DNA from: Jiangella anatolica | GTDB taxonomy: Bacteria > Actinomycetota > Actinomycetes > Jiangellales > Jiangellaceae | Direction: 5' to 3' | Assembly (NCBI RefSeq): GCF_003236295.1 | Contig: NZ_POTW01000076.1 | Coordinates: forward strand, 1 to 33,947 | Length of the DNA stretch: 33,947 nt | In this document: piece by piece, positions 1 through 23,167 of the stretch | Layout of the letters: each line of letters begins with the position of its first letter | Numbering within the stretch: position 1 is the first letter of the stretch | Made by a program: the position numbers and the translations under genes | The notes under the pieces: model-generated | Seen by the model: only the letters and a program-made list of their open reading frames with translations | What the model was told of the DNA's origin: nothing | The model's database searches: none

Positions 1-15
1 CCCCCTGCCCGCCGC

Positions 16-73
16 CCCATGATCATCAATGATCCGACCACCCATAGGGGGTTGGATCATTGATGATCATGGG
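16..73. repeat. Long palindrome, copy 1 (terminator-like dispersed repeat)
   Basis: Positions 16-39 pair with 50-73 to form a 24-bp stem with one mismatch (36/53, a G-U wobble in RNA read from the plus strand). The core of the arm is ATGATCATCAATGATCC and the loop is about 10 nt. The stop codon of the minus-strand gene to the right (67-69) lies inside the right arm. A second copy is at 20303-20362 with its asymmetric loop in the opposite orientation. A bidirectional terminator or a REP/MITE-like element are both possible. There is no clear T-tract. Confidence 0.85.
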
Positions 74-1179
74 AGCTCGGGGGCCGGCTCGGGATCGACG
101 ATGAGGACGACGGACGGCAGCAGGGCGTGCGGCACGTGCGGGGTGCGGGCCGTGCGGCGCCGGGCCCGGGCCGCGGTCACCAGCCGGACCCCCACCCACG
201 CCACGGCCATGAGGGCGGCCGCGACCACCGGTGCGATCAGCACGACGGCGCGGAAGAGGAACACCACCGGCAGCGCCTCGCCCAGGCCGGCGCCGGCCAG
301 CATGAGCGCGCCGACCAGCGCGGTCTCGGCCGAGCCGATGCCGGCCGGTGTCGGCGTGGCGGCCGACAGCGCGGTGCCGGCGAGGTAGGCGGCCATGCCG
401 ACGACGATGCTGATCTCGACGCCGAAGCCCTCGGCGGCCAGCGCGAACCCCGTCGCCAGGCACAGCGCCGCGGTCAGCTGGGCGCCCAGCGCGGCCACCG
501 CCAGGATCGGCCGGGCCCGCACCGCCGCCACGACCTCGCGTGCCGTCGCCCGGACTCGCTGCAGCTTGGTCGGCTGGCCGGCCGGCACGACGACGGGCAC
601 GGTGGACGGCGTCCGGGCGGCGCGCCGCGCGGCCAGCCGGCGCACCAGGAACCGCACCGCGAACACGACCACCGTCGCCACCGCGACGACGGTGAGCAGC
701 CCGCTCCAGCCCTCCCGCAGCCACGCGACGCCGAGCAGCAGGCCGGACGCATGCGCCAGCCCGCCCGCCACCGCCCACAGGGCCACCACGCCGGCGGCCG
801 CCGTGTTCGAGGCGCCGCCACGGTGCAGCGCGGCGACGAAGACGCCGGCCGCGCCGACGCCGGCCGGGACCACCCGGTTGGCGACCGTGCCGCCGATGTG
901 CGCGGTCGCGGCGCCGGACCAGGTGAGGTAGCCCGAGGCGATGGCCCGCTTGCCGGCGATGGCCGCGGTCGTCGCCATGATCCAGAACAGCGCGACCAGC
1001 AGCGGCACGTACGGGTTGCTGCGCGTCGCGGAGATCAGGTTGGGCAGCATCGAGGGCACGATCACGACGCACACGACCACGAGGATCGCGATCACGACCA
1101 GCAGACCGACGACCCGGCGAGTGCTGCCTGAAATCGCACTCCGCCGGGTCCGTGTGGTGGTCGTGTCCTCGGTCGCCAC
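67..1179 (-). CDS. Flippase-like membrane protein (LPG_synthase_TM / UPF0104 family)
   Basis: This is a polytopic membrane protein of about 370 residues. It belongs by pattern to the family of the transmembrane region of lysylphosphatidylglycerol synthase, whose members include putative lipid flippases. Visible signatures are ANRVVPAGVGAAG in the middle and ATPTPAGIGSAE near the end, in the place of the family's PAPGGxGxxE motifs. There are at least seven hydrophobic segments and a basic cytoplasmic linker rich in Arg and Ala. No aminoacyl-transferase domain is attached, so lysinylation is not expected. The start chosen is GTG 1179, because a -10-like CACCAT (1186-1191) lies exactly 6 nt before it, which suggests a leaderless message. 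An in-frame ATG at 1287 would overlap the upstream gene and adds residues that do not look coding. The stop codon is supplied by the palindrome at 16-73. The exact substrate is unknown. Confidence 0.75.
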   Translation of the reverse strand: MATEDTTTTRTRRSAISGSTRRVVGLLVVIAILVVVCVVIVPSMLPNLISATRSNPYVPLLVALFWIMATTAAIAGKRAIASGYLTWSGAATAHIGGTVANRVVPAGVGAAGVFVAALHRGGASNTAAAGVVALWAVAGGLAHASGLLLGVAWLREGWSGLLTVVAVATVVVFAVRFLVRRLAARRAARTPSTVPVVVPAGQPTKLQRVRATAREVVAAVRARPILAVAALGAQLTAALCLATGFALAAEGFGVEISIVVGMAAYLAGTALSAATPTPAGIGSAETALVGALMLAGAGLGEALPVVFLFRAVVLIAPVVAAALMAVAWVGVRLVTAARARRRTARTPHVPHALLPSVVLIVDPEPAPELP

Positions 1180-20302: not shown

Positions 20303-20362
20303 CCCCATGATCATCAATGATCCAACCCCCTATAGGTGGTTGGATCATTGATGATCATGGGG
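20303..20362. repeat. Long palindrome, copy 2 (terminator-like dispersed repeat)
   Basis: Positions 20303-20327 pair perfectly with 20338-20362 (25 bp). After one mismatch three more pairs close on a TATA loop. It begins directly after the stop codon (20363-20365) of the FtsX-type permease gene. The arms are nearly identical to copy 1 at 16-73. The gene on the other side is transcribed away from it, so it would end only the peptide-export operon. Confidence 0.9.
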
Positions 20363-23167
20363 TCAGGCGTCGCGGGTCAGCGTCGACGCGACCGTCATGC
20401 GGCGCAGCGCGGCGGCGGGGACGAGGCTGGCCAGCACCGGGACCGCGGTGCCGCCGGCGATCGTCAGCCCCGCCGCGACCAGCAGCTCCGCGCGCAGCTC
20501 GCCGGCCAGCCCGGCGGCGACGGCCAGCCCGGCGAGGGTGCCGCAGACCGCGCCGGTGCAGCCGATCAGCGCCGCCTCGGCCAGCACGACGCGGCGCACG
20601 CGCCCGTCGCCCCAGCCGACCGCCTGCAGGACGGCGAACTCCGCGCGCCGGTCGCGCATGTTGAGGAAGACGACGTCGGCGACGGCGATGCTGGACAGCA
20701 GGATCGTCACCAGCACGGCGACGTAGTCGATGTCGCGCGCCCTGACGGAGACCGCGTCGCCCAGCACGGACCCGACGACGGCGCCGTTGAAGGCCAGCGT
20801 GATGCCGAGCAGCGCCGTCAGCGCCGCGCAGCCCAGCGCGACCGCCAGCACGCCCAGCCCGGTCCGCCCGGGCGAGCGGACGACGTTGGCGACGGCGAGC
20901 GAGCGCACCCCGCGCACCAGCGGCGAGCGCTGGCCGGGCCGGATCCGCGGCTGCATCGCCCCGGCGATGGACGGCCGCGACGCCCGCCAGGCCGGCCACG
21001 CCGCGGCGACCAGCGCGACGACCACCGCGACCGGCACGGCGACGGCGGCCCGGACCGCCGTCACCTCCAGGCCGGTGACCCAGCCCATCGCGACCGACAG
21101 CAGGGCGCCGACGACCCCGGCGGCGCCGCCGACCAGCAGCACCTCGGCCAGCAGCAGCCGCAGCAGGTGCCCGCGGCTCCAGCCGACCCGGCTCAGCACC
21201 GCCAGCTCGCCCCGCCGCGACCGTGCCGCCGCCGCCGAGACGTTCGCGACGAACAGCGTGCTCACGGCCAGGACCAGCACGAACAGCGCGACGCTCTTGT
21301 GGTCGATGGTCTGCATGACGGCCGCGACGACGCCCTGGCGCATCCAGGTCTCGGCCAGCGCCAGCTGCGGCCGGCCGAACGCGCCGGCCGGCAGCTCGAC
21401 GGTCTGCTGGGTGGCCGCACTGCCCAGGACGATGTCGACGTCGAGACCGGTGCGCAGGCGGATCTGGTCGGCCACCAACCGGACCCGCTCGCGCTCGACC
21501 GCGCTGACGCCGTCGACGCCGGCCACCCGCACCCGGATGGCGCTGATCGGCGCGTCCTGGTCGGCCAGCTCGATGCCCGAGCCGGTGAACGTGTCCAGGT
21601 CGGAGAGCCGCATGAACGCCGTCGGCGGGCCCAGGTGGTAGGCGGCCGGGCTGCCCGACGGCAGCAGCGGCAGCCCGCCGAGCAGCGCCTCGCTCCGGGC
21701 GTCGGCCGCGGGCAGACCGGGCGTGCCGGCGAACCCGGCCGCCTCGAAGTCGGTGGAGTCGAACGTGCCGACGATGCTCAGCTGCGGCAGCATCGCGCCG
21801 CTCTCGGATATCGCCGAGCCCTGGTGCGGGCGCACCTCACGGAACCCGGTGTCGGCGACGATCGGCGGCGTCGGCACGTAGCCCTCAGTGCGGACCGACG
21901 ACTGCCAGACGTCCTGCGGGTTGCCGACCGGACGCGGCTCCAGCACGCCGCCGGCGCCGACGTCGTACGCCGTCGGCTCGGTGGTCCAGAAGCTGTCCAC
22001 CAGGATGCTCACCGGGCGTTCGGTCGCCTCGCGGATGAGCTCCTGGTAGGCCTGGTCGGCGGTGATCGTGTCGGTCGCGACGACCGCCCCGGGCGTGGCC
22101 AGCAGCGCGCCGACCTCGTCGAGACCGAGGCCGGTCGCGAACTCCGCGGCCGCCTCGTCGGGCAGCAGCCGCACGCTCACCTCGGCCTGCGCGTCGACGC
22201 GCGGCTCGGACGCGACGACGACGGGGACCGGCCGGCTGCCGGTGCCGGTCGCGGCGCCGGAGCCGGCCAGCGCCCGCAGCGACGCGGGCACCTCGTCGCC
22301 GGACAGCGCGGCCTCCTGCTCCGGGTCGACCGCGGCCACCAGCACCGGGAACGACCACTCCAGCTCGACGGTGCGCCGCGGCGGCGCCTGCAGGTTGCGG
22401 GTGGCGGGGTCGGCGCCGGGCCGGGTGGTCGCGCAGGTGCTGCTGCGCTCGCGGGCGGCCTGGGCCGGCGAGCCGGCGATCTCGCCGCCGAGGGCGCGGG
22501 CCGGGCAGACCGGCACGGTGGACCCGTCCGGCCGGATCTCGGCGATGCTGTACGGCTCGCCGCTGTCGTCGAGCTGGCCGAGCACGGTCACGGGGTTCGG
22601 GGTGACGTAGGAGAACGACGCGGACGGCTGCTCGATCCGGGTCAGCCCGCGGTCGCTGGTGTGCATGACGTCGGCGACCAGCAGCTCGCGGCCGGCGTCG
22701 GTGCGCGGGCCGGCGTCGATCTCGACCTTGGTCGCGGTCATGATGTAGCCGACCATCGCGACCGGCGCGGCCACCTCGACGCCGCCGAGGGAGCGGATCG
22801 CGTCGTAGTCGGCCATAGAGATGCCGCCGAACTGGCCGGAGAGCTGGTACGGCCGGACCAGCCCGCGGTCGGCCTCGAGCTCGCTGCGGGTGCCCGGCGG
22901 GCGGACGAGGATGTGGTAGTCGCTCTGCGCGGCCACCACTTCGCCGCGCAGCTCCAGCCGCTCCACCTCCGACGCGCCGGTCAGCACGGTGAACACCGAG
23001 GTCGCGGCGACGACGCCGAGGCCGAGCGCGAGCGCGCGGCCCCAATGCGCCCGCAGCTGGGCTCGGACCAGCGGGCCGACGCCCGGCGCGGCGTCGCCGG
23101 GACCGGCGCCGGACCGCCGCCGCAGCCGGGCGAGCAGCCGGCGGACGGCGTCAGCGCGCGGCGGCAT
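20363..23167 (-). CDS. FtsX/MacB-type ABC transporter permease
   Basis: The 934-residue membrane protein has a first helix at about 44-64 and a very large extracellular domain (roughly 65-595) without recognisable motifs. A three-helix FtsX core follows, its first helix in the LFVLVLAVSTLFVANV region. A second copy of the FtsX core closes the protein. This duplicated layout belongs to the permeases that work with LolD/MacB-type ATPases in antimicrobial-peptide export or resistance. The matching ATPase is most likely the gene at 26308-27096. ATG 23167 has GGGAGG and overlaps the exporter gene by 17 nt. It is the last gene of the cysteine-rich peptide operon and is closed by palindrome copy 2. 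Self-protection or lipid/peptide release are possible roles. Confidence 0.88.
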   Translation of the reverse strand: MPPRADAVRRLLARLRRRSGAGPGDAAPGVGPLVRAQLRAHWGRALALGLGVVAATSVFTVLTGASEVERLELRGEVVAAQSDYHILVRPPGTRSELEADRGLVRPYQLSGQFGGISMADYDAIRSLGGVEVAAPVAMVGYIMTATKVEIDAGPRTDAGRELLVADVMHTSDRGLTRIEQPSASFSYVTPNPVTVLGQLDDSGEPYSIAEIRPDGSTVPVCPARALGGEIAGSPAQAARERSSTCATTRPGADPATRNLQAPPRRTVELEWSFPVLVAAVDPEQEAALSGDEVPASLRALAGSGAATGTGSRPVPVVVASEPRVDAQAEVSVRLLPDEAAAEFATGLGLDEVGALLATPGAVVATDTITADQAYQELIREATERPVSILVDSFWTTEPTAYDVGAGGVLEPRPVGNPQDVWQSSVRTEGYVPTPPIVADTGFREVRPHQGSAISESGAMLPQLSIVGTFDSTDFEAAGFAGTPGLPAADARSEALLGGLPLLPSGSPAAYHLGPPTAFMRLSDLDTFTGSGIELADQDAPISAIRVRVAGVDGVSAVERERVRLVADQIRLRTGLDVDIVLGSAATQQTVELPAGAFGRPQLALAETWMRQGVVAAVMQTIDHKSVALFVLVLAVSTLFVANVSAAAARSRRGELAVLSRVGWSRGHLLRLLLAEVLLVGGAAGVVGALLSVAMGWVTGLEVTAVRAAVAVPVAVVVALVAAAWPAWRASRPSIAGAMQPRIRPGQRSPLVRGVRSLAVANVVRSPGRTGLGVLAVALGCAALTALLGITLAFNGAVVGSVLGDAVSVRARDIDYVAVLVTILLSSIAVADVVFLNMRDRRAEFAVLQAVGWGDGRVRRVVLAEAALIGCTGAVCGTLAGLAVAAGLAGELRAELLVAAGLTIAGGTAVPVLASLVPAAALRRMTVASTLTRDA

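What the first reader, a model, noticed from the sequence alone, without database searches (positions are those of the whole stretch)
16..73. Twin long palindromes at gene ends, one supplying the stop codon
Two near-identical 24-25-bp stems lie about 20.3 kb apart, both at the 3' end of minus-strand genes, with their asymmetric loops in opposite orientation. In copy 1 the gene's TGA is part of the palindrome. The AT-rich arms (ATGATCATCAATGATC) are unlike the surrounding GC-rich DNA. This suggests a dispersed element used as a terminator, or a mobile hairpin that targets gene ends.
Basis: partly seen in the sequence, partly recalled or inferred. Interest (0 to 1): 0.62.

Follow-up and report, generated by a model that had tools for sequence, protein, structure and literature searches.

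The report
Mobile hairpins with their own gene
The two hairpins are solo copies of a 52-base palindrome scattered over gene ends in a family of soil bacteria; fuller copies enclose one gene for a DNA-binding and perhaps DNA-cutting protein, and together they look like a mobile element.

Summary
The window lies in a Jiangella genome with 43 such palindromes plus at least 9 split by an insertion sequence. The unit is YCC-ATGATCAT-36 nt-ATGATCAT-GGR (52 bp in 38 of 39 own sites) with a variable, largely self-complementary core. It is typical of Jiangellaceae (20 of 22 genomes positive; 9 of 371 others of the class). Own copies sit at gene 3' ends (35 of 39, against 446 of 1506 random non-genic positions); 19 of 39 supply a stop codon. 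Few orthologous gene ends share it (5 of 95). Its likely full form is one gene (AbiEi_4 domain, weak DUF559 match) between two palindromes of one core type: of 60 genes, 44 have both, 10 one. Core type tracks protein relatedness (r=0.65); 39 of 39 own solos match a resident gene's core, but Phytoactinopolyspora solos do not. An IS1182-family IS lands on the dyad centre (9 of 9 own left ends). It works like REP/RAYT but fails that family's tested defining features. That the gene moves the palindromes is inferred.

The parts
15..73 (.). Solo palindrome copy 1 (unit 19-70, flanking CCCC/GGG); core type A (ATGATCCRACC)
   Evidence: one half of its core is identical in 16 of 16 bases to the half-palindrome beside the resident A-type gene on G000:C236
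43..46 (.). Dyad centre CATA of copy 1: the position at which the IS1182-family IS sits in other copies (empty here)
67..69 (-). TGA stop codon of the neighbouring gene, inside the palindrome arm
67..1095 (-). Gene with LPG_synthase_TM domain that ends in copy 1
   Evidence: own gene finder; Pfam PF03706 4.6e-12
20303..20362 (.). Solo palindrome copy 2 (unit 20307-20358, flanking CCCC/GGGG); core type A
   Evidence: empty at the orthologous locus in congener G011 (L350)
20331..20334 (.). Dyad centre TATA of copy 2 (IS target position, empty here)
20363..23167 (-). FtsX-type permease gene whose TGA (20363-20365) abuts copy 2
   Evidence: Pfam PF02687 4.7e-21

Best explanation
The two palindromes are solo, non-autonomous copies of a mobile palindromic element. 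SHOWN by sequence: (1) a dispersed family with conserved YCC-ATGATCAT arms, a 52-bp unit and a variable, largely self-complementary core; (2) placement at gene 3' ends, often with a stop codon supplied by the arm; (3) presence/absence differences at orthologous gene ends; (4) a fuller form of about 1.0-1.2 kb made of palindrome, one gene and palindrome, the two palindromes sharing a core type; (5) solo cores examined in four Jiangella genomes nearly all match cores carried by that genome's own genes; (6) an IS1182-family IS uses the dyad centre as its landing site. INFERRED: the gene product (AbiEi-type DNA-binding N-terminus; DUF559-like C-terminus, which I recall as Vsr/PD-(D/E)XK nuclease-like) recognises its own palindrome core, perhaps as a cruciform or hairpin, cuts there, and so causes the palindrome to be copied or moved to new sites in cis and in trans. 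Copies persist at gene 3' ends because there they disrupt little and bring stop codons. They may end transcription in both directions as a by-product.
For: Copies: 43 in the own genome; reversed-pattern control positive in 1 of 393 genomes. Length 52 in 38 of 39 own sites with 34-64 bp allowed. Gene-end placement: own 35 of 39, others 57 of 77, versus 446 of 1506 random non-genic positions. Polymorphism: 5 of 95 orthologous junction stretches carry it. Gene association: of 60 homologs of at least 55% identity, 44 flanked on both sides, 10 on one, 6 on none; 98 of 120 flanks filled, where about 0.7 would be expected from 7 hits in 356 kb of control sequence. Upstream and downstream cores of one gene differ at 2.69 of 16 positions, cores of different genes at 9.48. 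Mantel r=0.651, 0 of 5000 permutations as high, n=55. Solos close to a resident core (mean at most 5 of 16 mismatches): G000 39/39, G012 12/13, G009 6/7, G007 16/16; mean distance 4.34 to resident cores, 7.08 to other genomes', lowest of 2000 label permutations 5.24. Outside the family: a G026 homolog is flanked on both sides by CCATGATCATGAAG palindromes; 3 of 6 G034 homologs have palindrome pairs with other arms, and one of those arm types occurs 10 times in G034, always 42 bp, against 0 in three other genomes and 0 in reversed controls. Domains: AbiEi_4 in 21 of 21, DUF559 in 17 of 21 at E<=1. AbiEi antitoxins are reported to bind inverted repeats (PMC7319586, abstract).
Against: No movement was observed. 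The DUF559 match is weak: best 6e-4 among 21, and in the three proteins whose tables were printed it was below the curated cut-off (two) or absent (one); the only structure model failed (mean pLDDT 35), so nuclease activity is unproven. Solos listed for Phytoactinopolyspora do not match resident gene cores (G017 0 of 16, G018 1 of 5). The resident genome is the closest of 17 for only 30 of 96 solos, since core types are shared between species. Outside the own genome the solos come from a capped scan with the stricter arms (13 of 81 in G012, 7 of 39 in G009, 16 of 50 in G007). The protein-core correlation can arise from co-inheritance of a linked unit without recognition. No target-site duplication was found around solos or full elements. 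Homologs in G065, G234 and G259 show no palindrome pair although those genomes hold 5, 13 and 2 arm-pattern matches, and 3 of 6 G034 homologs show none; the scan had no control. Only one clean empty site was found. Of the 6 homologs without an ATGATCAT palindrome, five were rescanned: one (L416) has other palindromes on both sides, one (L455) on one side, three have none; the sixth, L435, ends beside an IS-split half.
Confidence: 0.68

Rival explanations
1. The palindromes are bidirectional transcription terminators kept by selection at convergent gene ends; the AbiEi/DUF559-like gene is a passenger that uses them at its own ends.
For: Strong hairpins; placement at gene 3' ends, 19 of 39 own sites between two 3' ends; flank positions 3 and 4 extend the pairing beyond chance (94 versus 75 and 50 versus 38 expected of 121).
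Against: No T-run; no excess of G.U over A.C on the mRNA strand (67 versus 63); a conserved 8-bp arm, a near-fixed length and gene-specific cores are not needed by a terminator; 90 of 95 orthologous junction stretches lack it.
Confidence: 0.3
2. The protein is a solitary AbiEi-type repressor and the palindromes are its operators; dispersed copies are regulatory sites.
For: AbiEi_4 domain in 21 of 21; AbiEi proteins are reported to bind inverted repeats (PMC7319586, abstract); an upstream palindrome lies 53-72 bp before the gene in 24 of 52 cases and 81-195 bp in 28 of 52.
Against: Own solos lie at 3' ends, not promoters (0 of 39 between two 5' ends, 6 of the 39 known on one side only); a second copy follows the gene within -1 to 17 bp in 44 of the 46 genes with a downstream palindrome; presence/absence turnover.
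Confidence: 0.12
3. The palindromes are miniature derivatives (MITEs) of the IS1182-family element found at their centre.
For: 9 of 9 own left ends of that IS lie at a palindrome centre; IS1272, of the IS1182 family, is reported to target inverted repeats (PMC5678879, abstract and passages).
Against: The IS ends (GAGCCTGTTGC) differ from the palindrome ends; one IS sits in palindromes of several core types and, in the two complete copies, duplicates the central 4 bp; its transposase was found at E<=1e-40 in only 2 of 12 genomes of the genus, whereas 12 of 12 have the palindromes.
Confidence: 0.03
4. A true REP/RAYT system with an undetected Y1 (HUH) tyrosine transposase elsewhere in the genome.
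For: Similar layout: a gene flanked by palindromes, plus extragenic solos.
Against: The flanked gene has no Y1 transposase match in Pfam; no GTAG or CGTC tag in the listed sites and flanks. A genome-wide search for Y1 genes was not run.
Confidence: 0.04

Closest known systems
REP elements with RAYT transposases, REPtrons (PMC3733652, passages; PMC2817692, search listing only)
   Same: Short extragenic palindromes in many copies; the full form is one gene flanked by palindromes; IS elements are known to insert into them (PMC1525189)
   Different: 52-58 bp with symmetric ATGATCAT arms and no GTAG/CGTC tag; the enclosed gene is AbiEi_4 plus DUF559-like, not an HUH tyrosine transposase; the core differs from one gene lineage to the next
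IS1182 family / IS1272 (PMC5678879, abstract and passages)
   Same: The IS inside the palindromes has an IS1182-type transposase and picks palindromes as targets
   Different: IS1272 is reported to replace its target inverted repeat without duplication; here the 28-nt halves remain and, in the two complete copies seen, the central 4 bp are duplicated
IS1397, ISPpu9 and other REP-targeting IS (PMC1525189, passages)
   Same: An IS with strict preference for a dispersed palindrome
   Different: The families named there are IS3, IS110, IS4, IS256 and IS5; IS1182 is not in the passages I read
AbiEi antitoxins of type IV toxin-antitoxin systems (PMC7319586, abstract and section list)
   Same: N-terminal AbiEi_4 domain; the profile hits AbiEi structures 6y8q and 9hlo weakly (E 0.06); reported binding of inverted repeats
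   Different: In the two copies examined the unit holds one long gene and no room for a second; the C-terminus resembles DUF559
DUS/USS inverted pairs at gene ends in Neisseria and Haemophilus (DUS-containing stem-loop families: PMC2267715, passages; terminator role recalled)
   Same: A conserved short word in inverted pairs at gene ends
   Different: Near-fixed 52-bp spacing, self-complementary core, resident gene; single copies of the arm were not surveyed genome-wide

Membership tests
REP/RAYT | GTAG or CGTC tetranucleotide tag at one end | tested here: not met
   Flanks are YCC/GGR with ATGATCAT arms on both sides
REP/RAYT | Flanked gene is a Y1/HUH tyrosine transposase | tested here: not met
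   AbiEi_4 in 21 of 21 and DUF559 in 17 of 21 members at E<=1; no Y1 transposase among the listed families
REP/RAYT | Many short extragenic palindromes | tested here: met
   43 in the own genome; 35 of 39 at gene 3' ends
MITE of a DDE insertion sequence | Target-site duplication | tested here: not met
   Direct repeats of 2-9 nt: at most 1 of 121 solos at any length; 0 of 43 full elements for 2-8 nt
MITE of a DDE insertion sequence | Ends shared with an autonomous DDE transposase element | tested here: not met
   The gene between the palindromes has no transposase match in Pfam or NCBIfam
Intrinsic terminator | Stable hairpin at gene 3' ends | tested here: met
   Window copies folded; placement
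Intrinsic terminator | T-run after the stem | tested here: not met
   Mean T fraction 0.09 in +1..+12 over 121 sites
Intrinsic terminator | Transcripts end at the hairpin | not testable with these tools
   No RNA data available
IS1182 family (the IS at the centre) | IS1182-type transposase | tested here: met
   NF033551 E 5.8e-47 for a contig-end fragment of 328 aa (160.7 bits, below the whole-protein cut-off of 270); PF05598 1.6e-13
AbiEi antitoxin | AbiEi_4 N-terminal domain | tested here: met
   21 of 21 members at E<=1, best 5.7e-13; above cut-off in the three printed tables
AbiEi antitoxin | Toxin partner gene in the same operon | tested here: inconclusive
   43 full elements are 983-1228 bp long; ORFs were inspected in two; genes beyond the palindromes were not surveyed
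DUF559 / Vsr-like endonuclease | DUF559 match above the curated cut-off | tested here: inconclusive
   Best E 6e-4 among 21 members (bits not printed); below cut-off in two and absent in one of the three printed tables; invariant E-L-D-G, H, R-D and R-D-N residues; structure model failed

The most novel reading that the evidence does not exclude
A class of mobile element outside the known transposase families, present in several actinobacterial lineages: a single AbiEi-DUF559-like protein, a palindrome reader plus nuclease, moves itself and many solo palindromes by acting on its own cognate hairpin. Each gene lineage and its palindrome core change together, so a genome's set of solos records which element genes it has hosted.
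Probability: 0.45. Interest if true: 0.9.

Novelty: new variant of a known kind. Interest (0 to 1): 0.76.

Why it matters
It gives a dispersed palindrome family in Actinobacteria a candidate gene. PMC3733652 (passages) notes that one of the two large REP super-families (CGTC) seems to lack a dedicated transposase, so a non-HUH candidate for moving palindromes would be useful. The system makes clear predictions: protein-core pairs, replacement of gene ends by incoming hairpins, and an IS that depends on the palindrome. Gene ends in this genus also appear to be rebuilt repeatedly by hairpins, which bears on how terminators and stop codons evolve.

Tried and rejected
RNA-level selection: no mRNA-strand bias of G.T over A.C. 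Strict base-pair covariation of the core: the B-type core varies mainly by transitions and, at some positions, not in step. IS1182 as the source of the palindromes: rejected by distribution and by the central duplication. Known RNA family: 0 Rfam hits in the window at gathering threshold. Phage origin: 20 viral contigs match the loose arm pattern and I did not examine them; the gene gave no viral relatives. Structure by AlphaFold2 from one sequence: mean pLDDT 35, unusable. Literature: searches for Jiangella+palindrom (three papers), a five-term Streptomyces/dispersed-repeat query (none), DUF559+palindrom (two papers), DUF559+mobile element and others (15 of 133 listed), AbiEi combinations (15 of 55 listed, seven) showed no paper that describes this system by title and start of abstract. 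Of these I opened only PMC3733652, PMC7319586 and PMC1525189, in part. The library holds no preprints and few subscription papers.

Errors and limits of my own: the first protein-core correlation (r=0.196) used wrong-strand translations for some genes and is replaced; the core distances do not depend on them. The first arm pattern (ATGATCATCA) was too strict; ATGATCAT is the conserved part. At least three listed matches of the relaxed pattern (G001:C2:174566, G002:C307:26539, G013:C212:7136; 59 bp) look like one shared stretch that is not a palindrome, so the single match in G002 is probably not the element and 19 of 22 is the safer count. The 116-of-121 length count allowed only 50-54 bp. The 77 'other' sites come from a capped scan and include at least one from an unrelated metagenome assembly (L231). 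Gene calls near sites come from a simple codon-usage gene finder of my own, not from annotation. The palindrome scan had no control.

Full report
What is there. Copy 1 (15-73) and copy 2 (20303-20362) are near-identical 59-60 nt palindromes in opposite orientation at the 3' ends of two minus-strand genes. The window is one contig of a 7.0-Mb genome in 256 contigs. A capped scan of named genomes found matching elements in named Jiangella, Phytoactinopolyspora and Haloactinopolyspora species. The first genome-wide pattern (ATGATCATCA arms) found 39 sites in the own genome and none with the reversed control: type A (the window's type, 13 sites including one of 42 bp) and type B (26 sites) share arms and length but not the inner sequence. 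With 34-64 bp allowed, 38 of 39 are 52 bp.

The unit. Relaxing the arms to ATGATCAT gave 43 sites in the own genome, 20 of 22 Jiangellaceae genomes positive with up to 132 matches each, and 9 of 371 other genomes of the class; the reversed control was positive in 1 of 393. The one match in G002 is probably not the element, so 19 of 22 is the safer count. Over 121 held sites with flanks (50-54 bp allowed) 116 are 52 bp. The flanks CC/GG are conserved, and flank positions 3 and 4 pair more than expected (94 versus 75 and 50 versus 38 of 121), so the palindrome runs 3-4 bp further out. Direct repeats were no commoner than one site, and no T-run was found.

Gene ends. With a codon-usage gene finder of my own, 35 of 39 own sites and 57 of 77 other sites lie within -50..+30 nt of a gene 3' end, against 446 of 1506 random non-genic positions. 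In 19 of 39 own sites a neighbouring gene's stop codon is the TGA of the arm, as in copy 1. None of the 39 lies between two 5' ends, though 6 are known on one side only; 9 of 77 others do, and 12 of 77 have no neighbouring 3' end at all.

Turnover. I took the 3' ends of genes beside 11 own sites and found 95 orthologous junctions in 11 congeners (four stretches were cut short by contig ends). Only 5 carry an ATGATCATCA element with at most 4 arm mismatches, although the genes are 77-94% identical; one more (G006 at L116) carries a half with the IS. A clean empty site for copy 2 is seen in G011 (CCTGA|GGGGAGCG against CCTGA-CCCC-[52]-GGGG-AGGCAGCG). At copy 1 the congeners' genes mostly run a few codons further to their own stop. 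A few orthologous places carry elements with the same arms and different cores at or near the same spot (L081/L133, L104/L136, L127/L128). Many far flanks could not be aligned, because intergenic DNA here turns over fast.

An insertion sequence uses the centre. An IS with ends GAGCCTGTTGC and an IS1182-type transposase has 9 left ends in the own genome; 9 of 9 lie at the centre of an ATGATCAT palindrome, in type A, type B and one other core. Halves are 28 nt in 8 of 9 cases and 27 nt in one. In the single-contig congener G006 both complete copies show a 4-bp duplication (CCGG, CGGG) of the exact dyad centre, 24+4+24 = 52, and 5 of 5 left ends lie in ATGATCAT halves. The transposase was found at E<=1e-40 in 2 of 12 genomes of the genus, so this IS is a user of the palindromes and not their source.

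The resident gene. Two own sites on contig C206 start 1053 bp apart around one gene of 313 codons, and congener G014 has the same layout. The product has an AbiEi_4 N-terminal domain (21 of 21 relatives) and a weak DUF559-like C-terminus (17 of 21 at E<=1, best 6e-4). Homologs occur in 21 of 22 Jiangellaceae genomes at E<=1e-10. I examined 71 loci, which hold all homologs of at least 55% identity listed except two short fragments: of 60 such genes, 44 have a palindrome on both sides, 10 on one, 6 on none. The same detection gives 7 hits in 356 kb of control sequence, or 0.7 expected in 120 flanks; 98 flanks were filled. Distances are regular: upstream 53-72 bp in 24 of 52 and 81-195 bp in 28 of 52; downstream -1 to 17 bp in 44 of 46. 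Full elements are 983-1228 bp and show no direct repeats at their outer edges (43 of 44 examined).

Core and gene go together. Upstream and downstream cores of one gene differ at 2.69 of 16 positions on average, cores of different genes at 9.48; for 29 of 44 genes the closest downstream core of all is their own. Protein distance and core distance correlate (r=0.651, 0 of 5000 permutations as high, n=55), and tree groups mostly hold one core type, for example type A: L435, L438, L439, L440 (support 98/89), type B: L413, L414, L418, L434 (support only 87/69) (cores). The own genome has three such genes with cores A (C236, its palindrome half split by the IS), B (C206) and CGGCGATC (C228), and 39 of 39 own solos match one of the three: 12, 24 and 3. 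One half of each window copy matches the C236 half-core at 16 of 16 bases. The solos held for J. muralis (12 of 13), J. endophytica (6 of 7) and J. asiatica (16 of 16) agree; they are only part of those genomes' 81, 39 and 50 matches. The two Phytoactinopolyspora genomes do not agree (0 of 16, 1 of 5): their listed solos may descend from lost genes, or the link is weaker there. Over all 96 solos, mean distance is 4.34 to resident cores and 7.08 to other genomes' cores (label permutations: mean 5.84, lowest 5.24 of 2000), but the resident genome is the single closest of 17 for only 30 of 96, because core types are shared between species.

Outside the family. Of the five non-Jiangellaceae genomes with two or more arm-pattern matches, G026 has a 59% homolog flanked on both sides by CCATGATCATGAAG palindromes. 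In G034 3 of 6 homologs have palindrome pairs with other arms, one of which (TGTGAAG..CTTCACA, always 42 bp) occurs 10 times in that genome, 0 times in three others and 0 in reversed controls; 7 of the 8 solos among them lie within -50..+30 of a gene 3' end. G065, G234 and G259 homologs showed no pair. The scan had no control. Paralogs of 31-33% identity in this family have yet another palindrome downstream (ATGATCAGGTGAC type: L431, L476, L477, L478, L481).

How it most likely works. The layout (gene between two cognate palindromes, many solos, turnover, no duplication) is that of a REP/RAYT system, but the tag and the HUH enzyme that define it are absent, so I do not file it there. I think the AbiEi-like domain reads the palindrome and the DUF559-like domain cuts it, and that repair copies the palindrome elsewhere. 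Binding of inverted repeats by AbiEi proteins is reported (PMC7319586, abstract); that DUF559 is Vsr/PD-(D/E)XK-like is recalled. Neither binding nor cutting by these proteins is shown. Terminator activity is possible but unsupported by a T-run or by strand-biased mismatches.

Papers seen: PMC5678879 (abstract and passages), PMC1525189 (passages), PMC2267715 (passages), PMC3733652 (passages, part of the abstract among them), PMC7319586 (abstract and section list), PMC2817692 (search listing only).

Noticed in passing
L358 and L365 (congeners G007, G010); L315, L316, L390 (G008, G006): Other long palindromes at the same gene ends: AATGATCACGT... paired with its complement in L358 and L365 (one arm also seen in L313 and L379), and AAGTTGATC(T/A)TGGAG-type palindromes in L315, L316 and L390. 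Different species carry different palindromes at one orthologous gene end.
   Followed up: partly
Inner edge of the upstream palindrome in full elements (e.g. L436, L450, L096): TRTCCACA, which resembles a DnaA box (recalled), lies within 20 nt inside the upstream palindrome in 18 of 44 full elements; its complement lies before the downstream one in 4 of 44; background about 0.004 per 20-nt stretch.
   Followed up: partly
L144, L146, L201 (Pseudonocardia spinosispora, P. eucalypti) and L249 (Caulobacter sp.): 64-bp sites with the same ATGATCATCA arms, some of them near-perfect hairpins, outside Jiangellaceae.
   Followed up: no
L127 positions 1-90 (own contig C69): The contig end holds what looks like Nextera adapter sequence (recalled), so the outer flank of that site is not genomic.
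   Followed up: no
L084 positions 1-92 (own contig C206): The first palindrome is extended by a further 20-bp perfect inverted repeat right at the contig start, which may be a fold-back assembly artefact. Several own contigs, the window included, start or end close to a palindrome.
   Followed up: no
L052 and L064 (own C181:50724, C223:52680); also own C223:102696: Single TGATCATCAATGATC sites without a second arm; L052 and L064 share flanking sequence.
   Followed up: no
L431, L476, L477, L478, L481: More distant relatives of the gene (31-33% identity) have a different palindrome (ATGATCAGGTGAC type) 14 bp downstream (65 bp in L431), so the gene-palindrome pairing may be a wider habit of this protein family.
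   Followed up: partly
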